Shown: one piece after another, positions 1,698-38,078 of the stretch | Numbering within the stretch: position 1 is the first letter of the stretch | Layout: each line of letters starts with the position of its first letter | Assembly: GCA_021737565.1 (NCBI GenBank) | Contig: JAIPDS010000016.1 | Span: forward strand, 1-38,078 | Direction of reading: 5' to 3' | Length of the DNA stretch: 38,078 nucleotides | Source: Desulfobacteraceae bacterium | GTDB lineage: Bacteria > Desulfobacterota > Desulfobacteria > Desulfobacterales > Desulfosalsimonadaceae | Made by a program: the position numbers and the translations under genes | The notes under the pieces: model-generated | Database searches by the model: none | What the model was told of the DNA's origin: nothing | Seen by the model: only the letters and a program-made list of their open reading frames with translations

Positions 1698-3091
1698 AGC
1701 AGCAACAAAACAGCCGGGACAATAAACGGATCCTTGTCGTGGATGACGAGGCAAATATGTGCCACATGCTGAGCCTTCTGCTAACAGAGGCCGGCTACGA
1801 GGTGGATACCGCAGAAGACGGCTCGGTCGCGCTGGAAAAGCTTGGTGAAAAACATTATCATTACATTTTCTGCGACATAAAAATGCCCAATATGGACGGC
1901 ATGGCTTTTCTCGAGGCAGCGCGGCAGTATTTGAATACAACCAGCGTGATCATGATGTCTGCCTACGGCACGATTGATACTGCTGTGGAGGCTATGAAAA
2001 AGGGTGCTTATGATTATATTTCAAAACCGTTTAAGCCCGACGAGGCGCTGCTGGTTTTAAAAAAGGCAGAAGAGCGCGAGAACCTGAAAAACGAAAACAG
2101 AGAGTTAAAAAGCCGGCTTGAAAATATCGGGGAGGCCGGCAGGTTCGGCAGCATGATTGCAGAGAGCAAGAGTATGCGGGATGTTTTTATGCTTGCAAGA
2201 AAGGTGGCCCGCTATGATACCACAGTGCTGATTACAGGGGAAAGCGGTACCGGCAAGGAGCTGATCGCCCGTGGCATTCATTTTGAAAGCAGGCGTTCGC
2301 AAAAACCCATTATCCCGGTCAACTGCGGTGGAATTCCGGAAAATTTGCTTGAAAGCGAGCTTTTCGGCCATAAAAAAGGGGCTTTTACCGGAGCGAGCCG
2401 GGACTACAACGGTCTTTTTGAAGCCGCTGACGGCGGCACCGTATTTCTTGATGAAATAGGTGATCTGCCCCTGGCCCTGCAGGTAAAATTGTTAAGGGTG
2501 CTTCAGGACAATGAAATACGGCCGGTGGGCACTGCAAATTCGAAAAAAATAGATGTCAGAATAATTGCCGCCACATCAAAAAATCTGGCAGAGGAGGTTG
2601 AAAAAGGAAATTTCCGGGAGGATCTGTTTTATCGTTTAAACGTAATGCCCATTCATCTGCCGCCTTTGATCGAGAGAGCCGATGATATACCGCTTCTTTG
2701 CAGGTTTTTTATAGAGCGCTACAGCACCAGGTTTAAAAAAAATATCAAGGGGATTTCACCCGAAGCCATGTCTATGCTTATGGAGCATACCTGGCCGGGA
2801 AACGTGCGTGAATTGGAAAACCTGATCGAGCGCGCCGTAATTTTGGCAGAAGAGCAGGAGCTTGATGGCGGATTGTTTTCTTCTCTGGCTCAGCCCGCGG
2901 AGTCCCGCCAGAACGGTGTTGATGATATAATATCGGGTTATTCCATCAAGTCGGGAAAGCAGGTCCTGGAAAAGGTCCTGATACGAAAGGCGCTTGCAGC
3001 CACGGGCGGCAACCGTACAAAAGCAGCTCAGCTTCTGGAGATAAGCCATCCATCTCTTTTGAGCAAGATAAAGACATACGGTCTTGAATAG
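1694..3091 (+). CDS. Sigma54-dependent response regulator, NtrC family
   Basis: This is a transcription activator of the bacterial enhancer-binding class and the partner of the kinase whose gene it overlaps. In the 465-aa protein the receiver domain covers about 12-125, with acidic residues D17/D18, phospho-acceptor D61 ([11 protein letters not shown]) and K111. A linker helix leads to the AAA+ domain: Walker A GESGTGKE (182-189), the sigma54-contact loop GAFTGA (229-234) and Walker [12 protein letters not shown] (249-259). A Fis-type helix-turn-helix closes the protein (about 433-464, [20 protein letters not shown]). The intact GAFTGA loop means it should act on sigma54 promoters. I found no convincing -24/-12 promoter next to it, so its targets may lie elsewhere. 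The subfamily (NtrC, ZraR or AtoC type) cannot be settled from this sequence. Confidence 0.95.
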
Positions 3092-3096
3092 CGGGG

Positions 3097-3381
3097 TTAT
3101 TTGCCCTTATTGATTCTTTCGCGAAGCTTGCCGGAGCATTTAAAGGTTACCACCTTTCGGGCGTCTAGCAGGAGGTCATTGCCGGTTGCCGGGTTACGGC
3201 CGCGCCGGGTGTTTTTCTGCTTTATGCAGAATTTTCCAAAGCCGGAGACAAGAACGTCTTCATCGTTTTCCAGACTTCGTTTTATAATTTCCAGAAGGGA
3301 TTCTACGATTTCCACTGATTTTTTCTTGGTAAACCCTAACTCATTGATCTGTTCGACGATTTTATTTTTTGTCAGTGCCAT
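3097..3381 (-). CDS. ihfA: Integration host factor alpha-like DNA-bending protein
   Basis: This 94-aa protein is a DNABII family member that bends DNA as a dimer. It has the dimerising helices (MALTKNKIVEQINELGF), the beta-arm region FGKFCIKQKN, and the signature RRGRNPATGNDLLLDAR with the intercalating proline of RNP. LSGFG-like and RRVVTF-like segments resemble IHF-alpha more than HU. The start at 3381 is chosen because AGGAGG precedes it and the family N-terminus begins there; an upstream in-frame extension would lack support. The ATG shares one base with the stop of the upstream small gene, so the two are translationally coupled. It converges on the response regulator with only 5 bases between stop codons. 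IHF commonly assists sigma54 activators, which makes this neighbourhood suggestive. Confidence 0.85.
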   Translation of the reverse strand: MALTKNKIVEQINELGFTKKKSVEIVESLLEIIKRSLENDEDVLVSGFGKFCIKQKNTRRGRNPATGNDLLLDARKVVTFKCSGKLRERINKGK

Positions 3382-3578
3382 TATGCCTCCTGATCCGGCG
3401 TTTGTTTGAGGTGGCAATCAAATTTTTCGGGGTCTGCTTCCGGCCCGGGATTGGTTGCCCGGGCAGTTTCGGTTTCAGTGACAGGGCAATACTTTTTTAC
3501 GGTTTTTAGGATATTGTCTATCCGGCTCGAAATTTTATCAATTTCATTTTTAATTTCATCGACTTGTGGTGCTTCCAT
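3381..3578 (-). CDS. Small coiled-coil protein upstream of ihfA
   Basis: This predicted protein of about 65 aa begins MEAPQVDEIKNEIDKISSRI and has one strong amphipathic heptad-like stretch (about 5-30), then a hydrophilic tail with two cysteines. I do not recognise a family. Its TAA overlaps the ihfA ATG (TAATG), the best argument that it is translated. The start is uncertain: the ATG at 3578 lacks a clear ribosome-binding site, and an in-frame TTG at 3623 would add 15 residues. On this strand a TTGACA box (3712-3717) followed by AT-rich sequence with TATAAT (3685-3690) lies upstream, but their 21-bp spacing is too long for a normal promoter. Confidence 0.45.
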   Translation of the reverse strand: MEAPQVDEIKNEIDKISSRIDNILKTVKKYCPVTETETARATNPGPEADPEKFDCHLKQTPDQEA

Positions 3579-3800
3579 AAAAAAAAGCCGTTTTGTGAAT
3601 CCGGGCTCATGGTTTTTCTGCAAAGCTACAGCCGTTAATAAACGATGAAGCGGATCTTTTCAAGGTGAAAATGATAATGTTTTTATTATAAATAAACCGA
3701 TATAAATAATATGTCAAGATGTTATAGGGACTTTTGAAACAAATTTCAGGAGAATTTGATTTTTCCGTTGCAAGTTTTTATATTACACTTTCTTTTTTAA

Positions 3801-3833
3801 TAAAAAAGGTTTCAGGAGCAAAAGCCTGAAACC
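3801..3833 (-). terminator. Intrinsic terminator of tRNA-Thr
   Basis: Read on the minus strand, GGTTTCAGG pairs perfectly with CCTGAAACC across an 8-nt loop (arms at 3825-3833 and 3808-3816), followed by a run of T. It sits about 15 bases past the CCA end of the tRNA gene. Confidence 0.85.
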
Positions 3834-3847
3834 AGTAAAATTCCTGG

Positions 3848-3923
3848 TGGAGCCGACGAGCGGAATCGAACCGCTGACCTGCTCATTACGAGTGAGCTGC
3901 TCTGCCTGCTGAGCTACGTCGGC
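3848..3923 (-). tRNA. tRNA-Thr, anticodon CGT
   Basis: The 76-nt cloverleaf reads on the minus strand. The acceptor arms GCCGACG and CGTCGGC (3917-3923 / 3852-3858) pair perfectly. The D arm is GCTC...GAGC, the anticodon stem GCTCA/TGAGC carries loop CTCGTAA with anticodon CGT at 3888-3890, and the T arm is AGCGG/CCGCT with loop TTCGATT. The discriminator base is T and CCA is encoded (3848-3850). It reads ACG threonine codons. Confidence 0.97.
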
Positions 3924-3943
3924 AAAACAAAAAGAAGTGATTG

Positions 3944-3971
3944 ATTATCACGGAAATGCCGCAGCAGTCAA
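3944..3971 (-). promoter_or_regulatory. Sigma70-type promoter of tRNA-Thr
   Basis: On the minus strand TTGACT (3966-3971) and GATAAT (3944-3949) are separated by 16 bp, each matching the consensus at 5 of 6 positions. The -10 box ends 20 bases before the mature tRNA 5' end. It is divergent from mfd. Confidence 0.7.
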
Positions 3972-4034
3972 GCCGTTTTTGGCTGATTACGGTATGTTGA
4001 TGATACAAAGCGAATCAGGAACCCGTTTATAAAT

Positions 4035-7000
4035 ATGAAAAAATATAAATCATTGTTTTTAAACACGCAAACCCAGGACACAGGCCCTGTTCAGACTTTA
4101 TATGAAAAGCTTGAACAGGGCGCGGACAGGGTTTCCTGCACAGGAACCGCGGGCTCGGAGCGGGCCTATATGCTGTGGCAATTAAGCCGCCGTATAAGGC
4201 GCCCCATGTTTGTGGTAGTCTCTGCTATGAGCCAGGGCGAGGCTCTTGTCCAGGACCTGGCCTTTTTTTCGGGAACCGGTGACGCCCCGCCGCTATATCT
4301 GTTTCCACCCTACAATATTTTACCCTTTAAAAGAGTTGCTTATCATGGTGAAACCGCGGCCAGGCGCATAAGGATACTTTATCAGACGGCGGTCGGGACA
4401 GATATCCCGGCAATCGTTGTGGCCCCGGTTGAAACCCTTCTGCAGAGAATTATCCCGCGTCGGGAGCTGTGCGATTACGCGGAGCTGCTGATGGTAAACG
4501 AGGAAACGGACCGCGACAGGCTGGTTGAAAAACTTAACGCCGGCGGATACGCGCATGCAGCTATGGTGGAAGAACCCGGAGAATACAGCATTCGCGGCGG
4601 CATAATGGATATATTTTCACCTATGTATAATGATCCGCTGCGCGTAGAATTCTATGGCGACACCGTAGAATCCATGCGGTTTTTTTCTGCAGCAACCCAG
4701 AGAAAAACAGGCTCTGTAAGCGAGGCGGTTGTACTTCCGGCAAGGGAGGCGATTTTATACAAGCACCAGGTAAGTAATGTACTTGACCGGGCAAGAACCC
4801 AGCGGTTAAATGCCGGTCTGGACAGGGCCGCAGAGGATGATTTTGCGGAAAGGCTGCGAAGCGAGGGTTTGTTTGCGGGCATTGAAAGCCTTCTGCCGCT
4901 TATTTATCCGGAACCGGATACTGTATTTGACTATCTTTCAGACCGGACATTAATGGTTGAATATGATGCCCCCGGGATTGAAAAAGCAGCGGTCCAAAAA
5001 GAGGATCTGGCAGCACAGAATTATGTTTCAGCCTGCCGGGACAACCGCATGTGCGTGCCTCCGGAGCAGATTTACCAGGACTGGCGGACCGCAAAAGCCA
5101 TGGTTGAATCAAGGCAGTGCCTTGGCTTCCATCCGCTAGGAGTCGGTTTTCCCCGAAACAGGAATTTATCCGGCAAGAGGGTCATTGAACTCGGGGTGAA
5201 GGACAATTCGGATATAGAAAATACCCTTCGCTCCGGAAAGAGGGGGGAGCGGGTTTTAAAGCCCCTGGCGGACTGGGTGGAAAACAACCGCATAAGCGGA
5301 TGTTCAACAATTATGGTCTGCAGAAGCAAGCCCCAGGCCGAAAGACTTTTAGACCTTGCCGAAGGCTACGGTATAAAACCGCAAGTTATTGATTCATTTA
5401 CAGAAATGCGCCTTAACGGCGAATCGCCGGCTATTTGTATAGGAAGACTTTCCGGCGGCTTTGTCTGGCCCGAACAAGGTCTTGCCGTAATAACCGACAG
5501 GGAGATTTTCGGCACCAGGGTAAAGCAGAGAAGCCGAAGGGAAAACCGGCAGCCTGTGCAGTCTGCCCTGCTTGATTTTGCGGAGCTTAATGCCGGAGAT
5601 CTCGTTGTTCACGTGGACCACGGCATCGGAAAATACCTGGGACTTGAAAAAATCACAGTTGAAGGAATAACAAACGATTTTCTGGTGATAGAATACAGAG
5701 GCGGGGATAAGCTGTTTTTGCCTGTTGACCGGATGGCCATGGTTCAGAAATACATGGGTGTTGACGGTGCAGCCCCTGTAATTGACCGGCTTGGCGGGAC
5801 ATCCTGGGTGAAGGTCAAGGCGAGGGCCAGAAAGTCGGTTGAGAAGATTGCAGGCGAACTGCTTGATCTGTATGCAGAGCGCAGGGTCAGAAAGGGACAT
5901 TCCTACGGCTCTCCTGACAGTTATTACAAGGATTTTGAGGCTGGTTTCCCTTACGAGGAAACACCCGACCAGCTAAGGGCGATTTCAGAGGTGACCGAGG
6001 ACATGGAATCTTCGGCTCCGATGGACAGGCTGATCTGCGGGGATGTAGGATACGGTAAAACAGAGGTTGCCCTTCGGGCGGCATTCAAGGCTGTAAACGA
6101 CGGCAAACAGGTGGCGGTACTGGTGCCTACAACGCTTCTGTCTGAACAGCATTTCCGGACCTTCACGGAGCGTTTTGAGCGCTATCCCGTAAATATAGAG
6201 AGCCTTAGCAGGTTCCGCAGCAGAAAGAAACAAAAGGAAATTGTTAAGGAGCTGGGCCACGGCGGTCTTGATATTATTATAGGCACCCACAGGCTGCTTC
6301 AGAAAGATATTGAATTCAAGGATCTTGGCCTGATCATAATAGATGAGGAGCAGCGGTTCGGGGTCAGGCACAAGGAAAGGTTAAAAAAGATGAGAAGCAC
6401 GGTTGACGTGCTTTCCATGACTGCAACGCCCATTCCCAGGACGCTTCATTTGTCCATGCTTGGTGTGCGGGACATAAGTGTTATTACTACTCCCCCGGAG
6501 TTGCGCCGGCCGATCATATCCTATATAAGCGAGTTTGACCCGGCAGTGATAGCAGAAGCTGTAAGAAGCGAGATGGAAAGAGGCGGGCAGATCTTTTTTG
6601 TGCACAATAACATCAATACAATATGGAATATCTCCAGGCGGCTCAGGGAAATGGTGCTCGAGGTGCGACTGGGTGTGGCCCACGGAAGGCTTGAAGAAGA
6701 AGAACTAGAACGGGTCATGTACCAGTTTATCAACCGGGAAATCGATATGCTGGTATCCACCACTATCGTGGAATCGGGGCTTGATATTCCGAATGCCAAT
6801 ACAATGATTATCAACCGCGCAGACCGCATGGGCCTGGCCCAGCTCTACCAGCTGCGGGGCCGCGTGGGAAGGGCCGAGACCCAGGCTTATGCCTATCTGA
6901 TAGTGCCCAGGGAAGCGGCCATGTCAAAAGATGCACAAAAGCGTCTAAGGGTGGTAATGGAGCACAGCGACCTTGGCGCCGGCTTTCAGATTGCATTAAA

Positions 7001-33555: not shown

Positions 33556-33888
33556 TCAGATTCCAAGCTTGGACAAAAAGATGCAGATGTCGTTTACTGT
33601 TTCCACAAGCCTGGGATGGGTTGAATGAAATTCCCTTACAGATTCGTAAAGACCTTCAAGGGAGGCCTTAAGCAGGTTGGGATTGAGTTCCTCCCGGGTG
33701 GCTTCATGAGCCGTGGCCTTGGCAAATTTTTTGATGCTTTCGGCCTTTTCCAGATCGGTTTCAGCAAGATCGGTTACTTCTTCATTTAAGCGGTTTAAAA
33801 GATCGTAATATTCCTGTTTCTTGTCTTCCGGAATGTTTTTGGAATTCTTGATTTTTTCTTTCAGAGTTGCCAGAGTGTGCTTTAACAT
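33556..33888 (-). CDS. DUF4404-like small helical protein
   Basis: The 110-aa protein starts MLKHTLATLKEKIKNSKNIP and is helical throughout, with a C-terminal block FHSTHPRLVETVNDICIFLSKLGI that resembles the end of DUF4404 proteins (HPxL...LGI). The start at 33888 has AAGGA 7 bases upstream; ATG and TTG codons further upstream lack proper spacing. Function unknown. It is the first gene of a probable four-gene unit with the permease, thyX and the MDR dehydrogenase. Confidence 0.72.
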   Translation of the reverse strand: MLKHTLATLKEKIKNSKNIPEDKKQEYYDLLNRLNEEVTDLAETDLEKAESIKKFAKATAHEATREELNPNLLKASLEGLYESVREFHSTHPRLVETVNDICIFLSKLGI

Positions 33889-34033
33889 GGGCATTCCTTG
33901 ATCTGGTTGTTTTGTTTTTTTTAAAGTCTGCAAAACAGTATTCGGATTTTTTAGAACATTACCTTAATATTTTTTTCAAAACAAGATCGTTTTTTGTGGA
34001 AAAAACCAGCCTGCCGGACCATAAGGACGGAAT

Positions 34034-34141
34034 TTGACAAACCCCTGCAAGAACTGCGATATAGAGGAAAAGGTTCACGTATGCTGCGGGAGACATCCTG
34101 AAACAGGTATTGTAAACTTTTTTATTCGTATTTGCCTATAA
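34034..34141 (+). pseudogene. Short Cys-rich fragment, possibly of a YkgJ-like metal-binding protein
   Basis: A TTG with AAGGA 6 bases upstream opens a 35-codon frame MTNPCKNCDIEEKVHVCCG... containing CxxC and CC followed by GRHPETG. This cysteine pattern resembles the N-terminus of YkgJ-type zinc/iron-chelating proteins. The frame is then lost and runs into the 3' end of the thiolase gene on the other strand. I read it as a truncated remnant; a genuine 35-aa peptide is possible. Confidence 0.33.
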
Positions 34142-35327
34142 TTGCTATGCTGCATATGTTCTGGAACGGAAATCCTCCCAGGTTGTGGGTCATTGCCAGT
34201 ACCGGATTTTCGAGCTGGCGCTTGTCCGCCCTGCCGTGAAGCTGCAGATACATTTCATAGAGCATGCGAAGGCCCGAGGCTCCAATGGGATGGCCGAAGC
34301 ATTTAAGCCCACCGTCTATCTGGCAGGGTATGCCGCCGTCGCTGTCATAGAAACCTTCCATAATATCATTTATAGCCTTGCCACTTTCTGAGATATGCAG
34401 GTCTTCATAGGTTACCAGCTCGGTGATGGAAAAACAGTCATGAAGCTCCATCATGCTGATTTCTTCCCTGGGATTTTCTATACCGGCTTCCTTGTAGGCC
34501 TCCACGCTGCACTTGGGAGTGGTTATAAAATGATCCCCGTCCCAGTCGTTAAAACCCATCTCCTCTCCGCTGCTTAAGGCAAGCTGCAGAGCCTTTACAG
34601 ATACAAAGTCCTTTTTACCCATTTTTCTTGCAATTTCCGGGGTGGTGACAATTGCGCATGAAGAGCCGTCGCTTACACCGCAGCAGTCAAAAAGCCCCAG
34701 GGGATGGGCCACAATGGGTGCAGCCATTACCTGTTCATCCGTAACCTTTTTGCGAAGATGTGCCTTGGGGTTTATGGCGCCGTTTTCATGGCTCTTGGCT
34801 GATACATGGGCCATTGCCCTTTTCAGGTCATCGTCTTTTATCCTGTACTTGGCTGCATAGGCGCTTGCAAGCTGGGCAAAGGAGCCGGGTGCTGTCAGGT
34901 TCGGCCACCACTGCCAGGCCAGGGTCCCCGTGTTTGATCCCCCTGCCGGCAGGCCTCCGTAACCGGTGTCCTTTAGCTTCTCCACCCCCAGGGCAAGGCA
35001 GATATCATACGCGCCCGAGGCCACCGCATAGCAGGCCCCCCGGAAGGCCTCGGTCCCGGTGGCGCAGTAGTTTTCGACCCGGGTGACCGGTATCATGGGA
35101 AGCCGCAGGGTAGTGGCAAGGGGCATGGCGGTTTTGCCGACGTTTATTTCATCCATGCAGGTGCCGAGCCATGCGGCCTGGATGTCCGCAGGCTCGATTT
35201 TCGCATCAGCAAGACATTCTTCAAAAGCTTCGACCATGAGTTCTTCGGCCCCCACGTCCCATCGCTCGCCGAACCTGGTGCATCCCATTCCTATAATGGC
35301 CACCTTGTCCCTGATACCTGTTGCCAT
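34122..35327 (-). CDS. SCP-x-type thiolase-like acyl-CoA enzyme
   Basis: This 401-aa thiolase superfamily member presumably cleaves or forms a carbon-carbon bond on acyl-CoA substrates. Cys88 in VENYCATGTEAF is the nucleophile position. HDCF at 296-299 is typical of SCP-x-like thiolases, and GHPIGASG (345-352) gives the catalytic His346. Near the end NLGGFPFQN replaces the CxGGG of classical biosynthetic thiolases, as is common in this subgroup. GGGAG precedes the ATG. It follows the fusion gene by 87 bases on the same strand. Such thiolases often need a DUF35 zinc/OB partner, and the upstream fusion protein contains exactly that domain. A retro-aldolase role, as for Ltp2-type proteins in sterol side-chain breakdown, is an alternative to thiolysis. 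Confidence 0.9.
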   Translation of the reverse strand: MATGIRDKVAIIGMGCTRFGERWDVGAEELMVEAFEECLADAKIEPADIQAAWLGTCMDEINVGKTAMPLATTLRLPMIPVTRVENYCATGTEAFRGACYAVASGAYDICLALGVEKLKDTGYGGLPAGGSNTGTLAWQWWPNLTAPGSFAQLASAYAAKYRIKDDDLKRAMAHVSAKSHENGAINPKAHLRKKVTDEQVMAAPIVAHPLGLFDCCGVSDGSSCAIVTTPEIARKMGKKDFVSVKALQLALSSGEEMGFNDWDGDHFITTPKCSVEAYKEAGIENPREEISMMELHDCFSITELVTYEDLHISESGKAINDIMEGFYDSDGGIPCQIDGGLKCFGHPIGASGLRMLYEMYLQLHGRADKRQLENPVLAMTHNLGGFPFQNICSIAIIGKYE

Positions 35328-35414: not shown

Positions 35415-37790
35415 CTAGGATTCCTGCGGCGATACCATTGCAAACAACGCTTCATTGGCATCCCCGAGCTGTCTTGCATCGCTCATGTCATTTATCCTTG
35501 AAAAATTTTCGCTTATCTCTTCAGGCGTGGGCGGGGTCTTGCCGTCGCCGATCTTTGCGCCCCTGCCGGTGAGTATGGCGGCCCTGCTGAAATGGCCTAT
35601 GCCGGCGTTAAAAATTTCACCCGACTCCGAGCATTGATCGCTGCACAGGTAGACAACCATGGGGGCTACAAGTTCCGGTTTCATTTTTTCGAACAGCTCC
35701 TGCGGCATTATGTCTTCTGTCAGCCTGGATGCGGCAAGGGGGGCGATGGTATTTACCCTGATGTCATATTTTTGCCCTTCAAGCTTAAGGGTGTTCATCA
35801 GGCCCACAAGGGCCATTTTTGCCGCGGAATAGTTGGCCTGCCCGAAGTTTCCGTAGAGGCCTGCCGCAGAAGTGGTCATGATGATCCTGCCGTAACCCTG
35901 CTCCTTCATTTGGCGGAATGCCGGTCTGGTCACGTTGTATGCCCCGTTTAGGTGGACCGAAAGGACTGCGTTCCAGTTTTCAGGCTCCATTTTAATAAAG
36001 CTCTTGTCCTGCAGTATGCCGGCATTATTGATCAGGATATCCACCCGTCCGTAATTGTCCATGGCGCATTTGATTATGTTTTCCCCGCCTTCGGGGGTTG
36101 CGACATTGTCGTAATTTGCAACGGCCTCTCCACCTGCGGCCTTTATTTCATCTGCAACCTTTTGGGCGGGTGCGGTTGAACCATCTCCCGTGCCGTCCCT
36201 GGCTCCCCCCAAATCGTTTACAACCACCCTGGCCCCTCTGGATGCAAGCTCTAAGGCATAGGCCCTTCCCAGGCCGCCTCCTGCACCGGTGATTACAGCT
36301 GTTTGTCCGTCAAACCTGATTTTGTCCTTTTCTTCGGCGGCGCCGGGCACCGGCCTTGCCTTCCAGAAATAATTTACAAATCCCCGCTCCTTGTCCCGGG
36401 TGCGTTTTCTGAATACCATTTGCATGGGCAGGCCGACTTTAATCTCAGAGAGCTTGCAGTCCGTGAAGTCTGCCATGAACCGCCCTCCGCCTTCAAACTG
36501 TATCATCCCGTAAATATGGGGCGGATCATAGGATACAGCCAGCATGTCACCGGTAAATGTTTTGACTTTTGCAGGACGGTCGGCGAATTCATAGTCCTGC
36601 TGGGCATATCTGGCAGTGCATTCAGGGTTGACGCACACATTTGCCCTGGGAAACTGCGGTGTGCCGCATTTTGTGCATTTTCCGCCTACCAGGCCCAGAA
36701 TCATTTTTCTGTTGCGCCACAGGGTTGTCATGGCGGTCTGGATCGGGGCTTCGGCCCTTATTCCCATCTCCGGCTCCATAAGATCCCGGAATACAAGCCA
36801 TTTGGGATAATTTTCAACTGTTTCCCGGTTTTCCAGGACAGGTTTTACTTTCGGCCTTTCTCTGAGTTCGTTTATTTTTTCAGTAACCGTAAAACAAAGC
36901 GCATCACAACCCTGGCCGAATCCGGCCGCCACAATCTTCTGCCCGGCTTCCGCCTCGTCAAGGGCGGCGGCCAGCATGAGAAGGGGATGGGCGCAGCCCG
37001 TGTCACCACAGACCTCATGCATGTTGTCCATGACCTTTTCCGGGTCTGCCCCCAGTTTTTTCGCAATTTTTTTGTGTTCCGCCTTGAAATAACAGGGGTA
37101 GACGAGCTTGTCGATCTGGTCTATCTTGAGATCAAGTTTGTTTAAAAGCCCGTTAATTGCCTCCGGTATGATTCCGGAGTATCCTTCATCCCTGACCCAT
37201 CGCTCCTCCCATGTATAGTCGAACCGGTGTCGGGCCCCGCGATAATGATCAACAAAATCGCAGGATATTGAATAGCTGCCGTTAAATTCCGCAATCACGT
37301 CTTGTCCGCCTGTCAGAAACGAGGCTGCACCGTCTCCGTACCACATTTCATAGAATCCGCCCGGCTTGGTCAGGCGGCAGTCCGAGGCCGTGACCAGCAG
37401 TTTTTTGTCCTTTTTGCCGGAGACCGATTCCAGGGCTGTAACAAGAGCTGTTGTACCGGCTTTCTGAGAGGCTGTAAAATCTGCGGTGGTTATATCCTCG
37501 CCCAGGTTTAAGGCGGTGGAGACAATGCCGGCGTTCTGGCGGTCGGCAAAGGGCAGGGAGGTGGAAGCCAGGCAGATACCGTCTACTTCCTTTTTGTCTG
37601 CGCTCTTCAGGCAGTTTCTCGATGCCTCAATAGACATTGTAACGGCGTCTTCGTCCCAGTTGCACATGGAACGTTCGCCCTGGGCCACCATTACAATGGC
37701 CGGGGAAAACCATCCCATGGCCTGGTATATGGCCGAACGCGAAAGCCGCAGCCGGGGAATGTATGCGCCGTAAGAAGTGATGCCGATCAT
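35415..37790 (-). CDS. Fusion protein: HMG-CoA-synthase-like + DUF35 zinc/OB + MFE-2-like SDR
   Basis: This is a 791-aa three-part protein. Residues 1-310 resemble archaeal-type HMG-CoA synthase (MIGITSYGAYIPRLRLSRSA, GDGAASFL, GDTGCAHPLLML), but the catalytic Glu, Cys and His positions seem to be Thr77, Gln109 (SQKAGT) and Pro232. Residues about 350-480 form a DUF35 zinc ribbon plus OB fold with Cys at 372, 375, 386 and 391. Residues about 490-745 are a short-chain dehydrogenase close to the hydroxyacyl-CoA dehydrogenase unit of peroxisomal multifunctional enzyme 2: TGAGGGLGRAYALEL (501-515), NNAG (588-591), Ser641, Tyr654 and Lys658 (YSAAK). A 45-residue tail follows. AAGGAG lies 8 bases before the ATG. 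With the downstream thiolase it would supply hydroxyacyl-CoA oxidation and substrate presentation for carbon-carbon cleavage. The pathway is unknown. Confidence 0.88.
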   Translation of the reverse strand: MIGITSYGAYIPRLRLSRSAIYQAMGWFSPAIVMVAQGERSMCNWDEDAVTMSIEASRNCLKSADKKEVDGICLASTSLPFADRQNAGIVSTALNLGEDITTADFTASQKAGTTALVTALESVSGKKDKKLLVTASDCRLTKPGGFYEMWYGDGAASFLTGGQDVIAEFNGSYSISCDFVDHYRGARHRFDYTWEERWVRDEGYSGIIPEAINGLLNKLDLKIDQIDKLVYPCYFKAEHKKIAKKLGADPEKVMDNMHEVCGDTGCAHPLLMLAAALDEAEAGQKIVAAGFGQGCDALCFTVTEKINELRERPKVKPVLENRETVENYPKWLVFRDLMEPEMGIRAEAPIQTAMTTLWRNRKMILGLVGGKCTKCGTPQFPRANVCVNPECTARYAQQDYEFADRPAKVKTFTGDMLAVSYDPPHIYGMIQFEGGGRFMADFTDCKLSEIKVGLPMQMVFRKRTRDKERGFVNYFWKARPVPGAAEEKDKIRFDGQTAVITGAGGGLGRAYALELASRGARVVVNDLGGARDGTGDGSTAPAQKVADEIKAAGGEAVANYDNVATPEGGENIIKCAMDNYGRVDILINNAGILQDKSFIKMEPENWNAVLSVHLNGAYNVTRPAFRQMKEQGYGRIIMTTSAAGLYGNFGQANYSAAKMALVGLMNTLKLEGQKYDIRVNTIAPLAASRLTEDIMPQELFEKMKPELVAPMVVYLCSDQCSESGEIFNAGIGHFSRAAILTGRGAKIGDGKTPPTPEEISENFSRINDMSDARQLGDANEALFAMVSPQES

Positions 37791-37942
37791 ATTTTAACTC
37801 CTTTGTTTTATACAGAGTTTGCTGTTTATGGTTTTGTGCTGATGACAGCCTGGAGATTTTTTCTGCCGGCGCGGAAAGTGCGCTTATAACGTCTGTCACC
37901 TGTTCATTTAGTTCCCTGTATTCTCTTCCGTCTTTTAAGGTT
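37791..37942. other. Leader region upstream of the fusion gene
   Basis: This 152-base stretch should contain the promoter for the fusion/thiolase genes, but I see no clear -35/-10 pair. On the minus strand it stays open in one frame (…KDGREYRELNEQVTDVIS…), which may be the trace of an older gene 3' end, but no start or family supports it. Confidence 0.35.
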
Positions 37943-38066
37943 GACGGCTTCGTAAAAAGTCCAATATCGGCGTTGCCCTTCATCCCTCGAAATTTCACGT
38001 ACGATAAGTACGCTGCATTTCTCGGGATTTTGTGCGCCTTGATCTTGAACTTTTTACTTTGCCGTC
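37943..38066. repeat. 124-bp element with terminal inverted repeats, copy B
   Basis: The ends GACGGCTTCGTAAAAAGT and ACTTTTTACTTTGCCGTC are inverted repeats of each other with few mismatches, and the centre has CACGTACGATAAGTACG. It aligns along its whole length with copy A at 18035-18159 while sharing only part of the sequence, showing two diverged members of one dispersed family. It lies upstream of the fusion gene at the window edge. Confidence 0.82.
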
Positions 38067-38078
38067 GGAAATCGACTT

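What the first reader, a model, noticed from the sequence alone, without database searches (positions are those of the whole stretch)
35415..37790. HMG-CoA-synthase-like domain with all three catalytic residues replaced, fused to DUF35 and an MFE-2-like dehydrogenase
By eye-alignment with archaeal HMG-CoA synthase, the Glu of the SES motif is Thr77, the nucleophilic Cys of ACKAGT is Gln109 (SQKAGT) and the His of FHQPN is Pro232. A Cys-to-Gln change is what turns polyketide ketosynthases into decarboxylating KSQ domains, so this could be a decarboxylase-like or purely structural domain. The same chain carries the DUF35 domain known to bridge thiolases and HMG-CoA synthases, plus a complete dehydrogenase (Ser641, Tyr654, Lys658). 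One polypeptide that holds a dead or repurposed condensing domain, a CoA-substrate shuttle and a hydroxyacyl-CoA dehydrogenase is an unusual enzyme.
Basis: partly seen in the sequence, partly recalled or inferred. Interest (0 to 1): 0.68.

Follow-up and report, generated by a model that had tools for sequence, protein, structure and literature searches.

The report
Dead HMG-CoA-synthase scaffold fused to dehydrogenase
Anaerobic bacteria of the sulfate-reducer group carry a conserved three-part protein in which a fat-metabolism enzyme domain has lost its catalytic residues, apparently to serve as a docking platform that holds a dehydrogenase next to the thiolase encoded by the following gene.

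Summary
ORF 35415-37790(-), 791 aa, is HMG-CoA-synthase-like (1-330) + DUF35 (351-486) + MFE-2-type (3R)-hydroxyacyl-CoA dehydrogenase (489-790). Glu, Cys and His of the synthase triad align to Thr77, Gln109 and Pro232. A KSQ-like decarboxylase is not supported: in 116 distinct homologues position 109 is Q 67, L 37, M 6, I 5, V 1, while Thr77 (114) and Pro232 (116) hold; 28 more distant ones show no Glu, Cys or His there either. The domain is under purifying selection. Closest solved relatives are PhlA, the non-catalytic subunit of PhlA/PhlB(DUF35)/PhlC(thiolase), and the archaeal HMG-CoA synthase of an equivalent complex. A thiolase with intact Cys/His/His follows 59 of 60 fused loci; a hydratase-2 gene precedes 58 of 63. 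Best reading: a pseudo-enzyme platform that, with DUF35, docks the dehydrogenase onto the thiolase for MFE-2-type beta-oxidation. Complex formation, direction and channelling are inferred. The fusion is common in Desulfobacterota; nine paper searches listed nothing describing it. New variant of a known kind.

The parts
35415..37790 (-). CDS of the 791-aa fusion protein
36801..37790 (-). HMG-CoA-synthase-like domain, aa 1-330, catalytically dead
37560..37562 (-). Thr77 codon, in place of catalytic Glu
   Evidence: alignment to 6esq_I; T in 114 of 116, V in 2
37464..37466 (-). Gln109 codon, in place of catalytic Cys
   Evidence: Q/L/M/I/V = 67/37/6/5/1 of 116
37095..37097 (-). Pro232 codon, in place of catalytic His
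   Evidence: P in 116 of 116
36333..36740 (-). DUF35 (zinc ribbon + OB fold), aa 351-486; Cys372, 375, 386, 391
   Evidence: Pfam, 6esq_E; the four Cys in 116 of 116
35421..36326 (-). MFE-2-type (3R)-hydroxyacyl-CoA dehydrogenase domain, aa 489-790; Ser641, Tyr654, Lys658
34122..35327 (-). Thiolase gene (NF004810), proposed partner; Cys88, His296, His346
37791..38078 (-). Contig end with the remnant of the 3' part of the upstream hydratase-2/dehydrogenase gene; last 119 bases identical to the end of contig C57

Best explanation
The N-terminal domain is a pseudo-enzyme: an HMG-CoA-synthase fold without any of its three catalytic residues, kept as the platform subunit of a thiolase/DUF35/HMGCS-like complex, as PhlA is in the PhlABC acyltransferase. 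DUF35 bridges it to the thiolase encoded by the next gene. In this lineage an MFE-2-type (3R)-hydroxyacyl-CoA dehydrogenase (with an SCP2 domain in most relatives collected) has been fused to the DUF35 end, so the enzyme that makes 3-ketoacyl-CoA is tethered to the thiolase that cleaves it. With the upstream hydratase-2/dehydrogenase gene this makes a bacterial MFE-2-type beta-oxidation set. Shown: domain content, residue losses and their conservation, gene order, homology to solved complexes, purifying selection. Inferred: complex formation, degradative direction, hand-over of the intermediate, substrate class.
For: Triad absent in all readable positions of 116 + 28 homologues with dN/dS 0.08-0.18 in seven orthologue pairs: dead but maintained. 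Best sequence matches in the PDB for this part are PhlA-type subunits and 6esq_I; best Z with 6esq_I, 9skh and PhlA. PhlA lacks Cys and Glu, and only PhlC acts in PhlABC (PMC6392133). Thiolase downstream in 59 of 60 fused loci; for unfused forms 26 of 28 by script and the other two by inspection; thiolase residues intact. Hydratase-2 gene upstream in 58 of 63 fused loci, against 2 of 23 unfused. Dehydrogenase S-Y-K in 81 of 81, about 50% identical to rat MFE-2. DUF35 domains fused to the preceding enzyme bind thiolase-fold partners in Shy-Sal and ChsH2-Ltp2 (PMC12329534 passages).
Against: No direct evidence of a complex; no multimer model could be made. In Shy-Sal 93% of the intermediate was released, so channelling is not a given. 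Fusion was lost again in a few lineages that keep the gene order (L069, L079), so tethering is not essential. The racemase-like gene is near only 13 of 32 fused loci, so the substrate is uncertain.
Confidence: 0.75

Rival explanations
1. KSQ-like decarboxylase: Gln109 in place of Cys lets the domain decarboxylate a malonyl-type thioester.
For: Gln at the nucleophile position in this protein and in 67 of 116 homologues.
Against: Leu, Met, Ile or Val in the other 49 of 116; mostly Leu in distant ones (16 of 28); 15 changes on the tree; the catalytic His is Pro in 116 of 116. That KSQ domains keep their active-site His residues is recalled, not tested.
Confidence: 0.04
2. The domain keeps a different catalysis of its own, using other residues around the old active site (Thr77 and neighbouring conserved residues).
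For: Thr77 (114 of 116) and Pro232 (116 of 116) are as conserved as many structural residues, and the site is lined by invariant residues such as D104, R139 and C233.
Against: Position 109 varies freely; position 232 varies in distant members (Tyr 12, Pro 9 of 28); PhlA is an inactive precedent with other residues there.
Confidence: 0.09
3. The complex works in the building direction (Claisen condensation or C-acylation followed by reduction), as PhlABC does, and not in beta-oxidation.
For: PhlABC, a close characterised relative of the N-terminal part, transfers acyl groups in antibiotic biosynthesis. Dehydrogenase and hydratase steps are reversible in principle (recalled).
Against: Among 32 fused loci with 4 kb on both sides, 19 have an acyl-CoA dehydrogenase, 13 a racemase-like gene and 6 an acyl-CoA ligase. 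The dehydrogenase is closest to MFE-2. The thiolase scores 180 bits with a thiolase and 72-85 with PhlC types.
Confidence: 0.1

Closest known systems
PhlA/PhlB/PhlC acyltransferase of Pseudomonas protegens (PDB 5m3k, 5mg5; PMC6392133)
   Same: HMGCS-fold subunit without catalytic Cys and Glu, DUF35 subunit, active thiolase-like subunit, genes together
   Different: Three separate proteins, no dehydrogenase, CoA-independent acyl transfer in biosynthesis; other residues at the lost positions (Gly115, Cys83)
Archaeal acetoacetyl-CoA thiolase/DUF35/HMG-CoA synthase complex (PDB 6esq, 6et9)
   Same: Same three folds; best structural match of the N-terminal part (Z 47.3) and best thiolase match (180 bits)
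   Different: HMG-CoA synthase there keeps Cys114 and Glu82 (PMC6392133); separate proteins; mevalonate pathway
Shy-Sal and ChsH1-ChsH2-Ltp2 (DUF35-linked hydratase/aldolase complexes; PMC12329534)
   Same: DUF35 fused to the enzyme of the preceding step and binding a thiolase-fold partner
   Different: Fused partner is a MaoC hydratase, partner enzyme an aldolase; no HMGCS-like part
Peroxisomal MFE-2 and SCP2-thiolase
   Same: (3R)-dehydrogenase about 50% identical to rat MFE-2, hydratase 2 and SCP2 domain in the operon, thiolase related to SCP2-thiolases
   Different: No HMGCS-like or DUF35 parts in the eukaryotic enzymes (recalled); different domain order

Membership tests
Catalytic HMG-CoA synthase | HMG-CoA-synthase fold | tested here: met
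   Z 47.3, 1.6 A over 334 residues with 6esq_I
Catalytic HMG-CoA synthase | Glu/Cys/His triad | tested here: not met
   Thr77/Gln109/Pro232; absent in homologues too
Catalytic HMG-CoA synthase | Score over NCBIfam equivalog cut-offs | tested here: not met
   NF003274 207.1 of 244; TIGR00748 161.6 of 353.35 bits
PhlA-type non-catalytic HMGCS-like subunit | HMGCS fold without catalytic Cys and Glu | tested here: met
PhlA-type non-catalytic HMGCS-like subunit | Encoded with DUF35 and an active-Cys thiolase-fold protein | tested here: met
   DUF35 in the same chain; thiolase next, Cys in 87 of 87 distinct thiolases aligned
PhlA-type non-catalytic HMGCS-like subunit | Physical complex with DUF35 and thiolase | not testable with these tools
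   no multimer prediction or binding assay
KSQ decarboxylase domain | Conserved Gln at the nucleophile position | tested here: not met
   Q in 67 of 116, 1 of 27 readable distant ones
KSQ decarboxylase domain | Retained active-site His (defining feature recalled) | tested here: not met
   Pro in 116 of 116; no His in 27 readable distant ones
DUF35 (zf-ChsH2 / OB_ChsH2_C) | Cys4 zinc ribbon and OB fold | tested here: met
   Pfam over cut-off; Cys372/375/386/391 in 116 of 116
MFE-2 (3R)-hydroxyacyl-CoA dehydrogenase | Sequence and fold relation, Ser-Tyr-Lys | tested here: met
   best PDB matches; Z 37.3 with 1gz6_A; 81 of 81
MFE-2 (3R)-hydroxyacyl-CoA dehydrogenase | NAD-dependent activity on (3R)-hydroxyacyl-CoA | not testable with these tools
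   needs an assay

The most novel reading that the evidence does not exclude
The pseudo-HMG-CoA synthase supplies half of a shared CoA site and an acyl-chain pocket, so that the 3-ketoacyl-CoA made by the fused dehydrogenase swings into the thiolase on its CoA arm without release. The operon (hydratase 2, two (3R)-dehydrogenases, SCP2 domains, SCP2-type thiolase, in part of the loci a racemase-like gene) would be an anaerobic bacterial counterpart of the peroxisomal branched-chain/side-chain beta-oxidation set, assembled as one channelling complex around a dead enzyme.
Probability: 0.33. Interest if true: 0.72.

Novelty: new variant of a known kind. Interest (0 to 1): 0.5.

Why it matters
The authors of the Shy-Sal work write that it will be interesting to determine whether substrate is channelled in other DUF35 complexes (PMC12329534 passage). 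Here the preceding enzyme is fused to the DUF35/HMGCS-like platform, so one purified protein plus one thiolase would test it. It also indicates that loss of HMG-CoA-synthase catalysis with retention of the fold, known from PhlA, marks a large bacterial family (matches at E <= 1e-40 in 110 of 395 sampled genomes of the phylum), whose members could easily be annotated as HMG-CoA synthases.

Tried and rejected
KSQ-like decarboxylation: rejected on conservation. An intact triad elsewhere: none seen in the alignments. Alkane (fumarate-addition) origin of the substrate: the own genome, 87.9% complete, shows no PFL-like protein (0 of 1 genome; control genomes rang in 3 of 14), so not supported here; the passages of PMC4561516 hold no mention of a racemase. 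One clean duplication of the two dehydrogenase domains: not shown, as fused and MFE-2 copies need 10 changes of label, at least 6 forced. Literature: the listings gave no paper that by title or abstract start describes this fusion; in PMC5109826 and PMC13365417 the terms for HMG-CoA synthase and DUF35 do not occur in the main text. The paper on the archaeal complex is not held; I know it through the citing papers and PDB titles. Domain orientation in the model was not interpreted. The viral fold library and the viral, phage, plasmid, E. coli and metagenome collections were not searched. The second structure job was not used.

Limits of the sample: the 116 cores come from the best 80 of 549 relatives (a capped list), 30 loci and the loci, identical cores counted once, so they lean to close relatives and the share of fused forms is not a frequency; most listed matches have frames of about 470-580 aa, i.e. 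unfused. The 28 distant rows were picked by me: 20 regions from the lower part of the listed matches, six genomes and two loci. Five of the 28 have no DUF35 in the same ORF, and one each has a gap at position 109 or 232.

Full report
The thing itself. The minus-strand ORF 35415-37790 encodes 791 residues. Pfam finds the C-terminal part of a ketosynthase-III-like domain (216-298), the zinc ribbon and OB fold of DUF35/ChsH2 (367-391, 408-461) and a short-chain dehydrogenase (496-685), all above curated cut-offs. NCBIfam archaeal HMG-CoA synthase models cover residues 1-333 but stay below their equivalog cut-offs (207.1 of 244 and 161.6 of 353.35 bits). The next gene on the same strand, 34122-35327, is a thiolase of family NF004810 (702.5 bits, cut-off 403).

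The residue claim. The phmmer alignment to the archaeal enzyme 6esq_I places Thr77, Gln109 and Pro232 opposite the catalytic Glu, Cys and His. PMC6392133 names the archaeal Cys114 and Glu82 and says both are missing in PhlA (Gly115 and Cys83 there; section 6 read); the His is read from the alignment. An AlphaFold2 model from 72 aligned sequences (mean pLDDT 84.6, pTM 0.70) superposes residues 1-339 on 6esq_I (Z 47.3, 1.6 A, 334 residues) and 1-349 on PhlA (Z 45.6-45.9, 2.4 A, 346 residues); residues 487-791 match rat MFE-2 dehydrogenase (Z 37.3, 3.7 A, 298 residues, 50% identity).

Is Gln109 meaningful? I collected 116 distinct HMGCS-like+DUF35 cores. Position 77 is Thr in 114 and Val in 2. 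Position 109 is Gln in 67, Leu in 37, Met in 6, Ile in 5 and Val in 1. Position 232 is Pro in all 116. Fused and unfused forms both show Gln as well as Leu, and the tree needs 15 changes at position 109. In 28 further, more distant proteins (23 with DUF35 in the same ORF) position 77 is Thr in 26, Val in 1, Ala in 1; position 109 is Leu in 16, the rest Thr 3, Pro 3, Ile 2, Val 1, Ala 1, Gln 1 and one gap; position 232 is Tyr in 12, Pro in 9, Asp in 2, Phe, Asn, Gln and Ala in 1 each, and one gap. Glu, Cys and His do not appear at these places. So the nucleophile is gone throughout the sample but nothing holds the site to Gln, which argues against KSQ-type chemistry. The domain is not decaying: over seven pairs of orthologues dN/dS is 0.08-0.18 for the HMGCS-like part, against 0.05-0.17 for the dehydrogenase in the six pairs where it could be computed (dS is near saturation in most pairs, so these are rough).

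Surroundings. In loci with at least 1 kb downstream a thiolase on the same strand follows in 59 of 60 fused cases; the exception, L042, has an interrupted fusion frame. For unfused HMGCS-like+DUF35 proteins the script found 26 of 28; in the other two (L016, L069) a thiolase ORF overlaps the end because a long start was chosen. In the short distant loci a thiolase ORF is seen in 25 of 28. The thiolase keeps its catalytic residues in 87 distinct sequences: Cys88 87, His296 87, His346 86 with one gap. Upstream, a gene with hydratase 2 (MaoC), mostly with dehydrogenase and SCP2, lies before 58 of 63 fused loci that have 1.5 kb upstream, against 2 of 23 unfused (3 if either side counts). Of the five exceptions three (L107, L108, L113) hold only 1,500 bases there, and L076 and L101 have a separate dehydrogenase gene without hydratase. 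In 32 fused loci with 4 kb on both sides there is, anywhere in the locus, a TetR regulator in 24, an acyl-CoA dehydrogenase in 19, an alpha-methylacyl-CoA-racemase-like gene in 13 and an acyl-CoA ligase in 6; in 11 unfused loci the counts are 1, 3, 0 and 1. Desulfosarcina alkanivorans (L038) shows acyl-CoA dehydrogenase, TetR, hydratase-2/dehydrogenase/SCP2, fusion, thiolase, AMP-binding ligase and two acyl-CoA dehydrogenases in a row.

The window's own genome. The window is a whole contig (C93) that ends just upstream of the fusion. Its last 119 bases are identical to the end of contig C57, which carries a 566-aa hydratase-2+dehydrogenase ORF and, divergently, a CoA-transferase-III-family gene whose best PDB matches are alpha-methylacyl-CoA racemases (6.2e-62). 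The positions that align with the racemase His, Asp and Glu (that these are catalytic is recalled) are H, D, E in 18 of 20 distinct such neighbours over all loci, the other two being cut before the Glu. So the operon here is probably hydratase 2/dehydrogenase, fusion, thiolase, with a racemase-like gene divergent.

Architecture and history. Of the 116 cores 61 are followed by dehydrogenase+SCP2, 17 by dehydrogenase alone, 5 by a dehydrogenase cut by the contig end, 28 by nothing, and 5 cannot be told. The rows of the window's genus (791-819 aa where complete) lack the SCP2 tail that others of about 910 aa have; some other lineages lack it too. All 83 fused rows fall in one branch of 89 rows (support 92, below the starred level), together with 3 unfused and 3 undetermined; the label needs three changes, which fits one gain and two losses, and starred branches force two. 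The dehydrogenases of the fusion and of the upstream gene are more alike within a locus (median 72.3% identity, 51 loci) than across loci (67.2%), and do not form two clean clades, which suggests repeated exchange between the copies. Fused forms are mostly in Thermodesulfobacteriota records or records labelled only Deltaproteobacteria; the Chloroflexi, Nitrospirae and Myxococcales records among the 80 carry unfused or cut forms.

How it most likely works. In PhlABC and the archaeal complex DUF35 holds an HMGCS-fold dimer and a thiolase dimer together; in PhlABC only the thiolase-like PhlC acts, and CoA in the archaeal complex is bound at an interface of all three proteins (PMC6392133). In Shy-Sal and ChsH2-Ltp2 DUF35 is fused to the hydratase of the preceding step (PMC12329534 passages). 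The present protein combines both designs: a dead HMGCS platform plus DUF35, fused to the dehydrogenase of the preceding step, next to a live thiolase. I read it as a platform that docks dehydrogenase to thiolase in MFE-2-type beta-oxidation. Docking, direction and any channelling are inferences; in Shy-Sal no significant channelling was found, which is a caution. The pseudo-enzyme may also give part of the CoA site or an acyl pocket; I could not test this.

Substrate. Racemase-like gene, hydratase 2, (3R)-dehydrogenases, SCP2 domains and SCP2-type thiolase together recall the peroxisomal oxidation of 2-methyl-branched and side-chain acyl-CoAs (recalled), so branched or bulky acyl-CoAs are a reasonable guess. 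The racemase-like gene is near only 13 of 32 fused loci, and the hydratase motif departs from the usual one (Asn replaced by Phe in 64 of 65; the usual motif is recalled), so this is weak.

Novelty. The parts are known; the arrangement was not found in nine paper searches (listings only) nor in the passages of five papers and one section that I saw. I rate it a new, widespread variant of a known kind.

Noticed in passing
window 37791-38078; L164 (G000:C57) 2316-4136: The upstream hydratase-2/dehydrogenase gene of this genome ends early (566 aa, no SCP2 domain) and a stretch resembling its usual continuation follows beyond a stop at the contig join; SCP2 thus seems lost from both proteins of the operon here.
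   Followed up: partly
L011 10533-12638 and 64 other hydratase-2 domains: The hydratase-2 motif keeps Asp and His (65 of 65) but has Phe where Asn is usual (64 of 65; usual motif recalled).
   Followed up: partly
fusion and upstream MFE-2-like genes in 51 loci: Their two dehydrogenase domains are more alike within a locus than across loci (up to 87% identity in L067), as if exchanged repeatedly.
   Followed up: partly
window 33556-33933 (-): Small DUF4404 protein just after the thiolase; ORFs that look alike at the start lie near the operon in L009, L010, L012 and L018.
   Followed up: no
L042, 7001-8824 (CP070746.1): Fusion frame stops at 607 aa inside the dehydrogenase and no thiolase gene was detected after it: an interrupted operon in one MAG chromosome.
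   Followed up: no
L088, 1322-8956 (Chloroflexi MAG): Two tandem sets of HMGCS-like+DUF35, thiolase and a separate short dehydrogenase: the unfused trio, duplicated.
   Followed up: no
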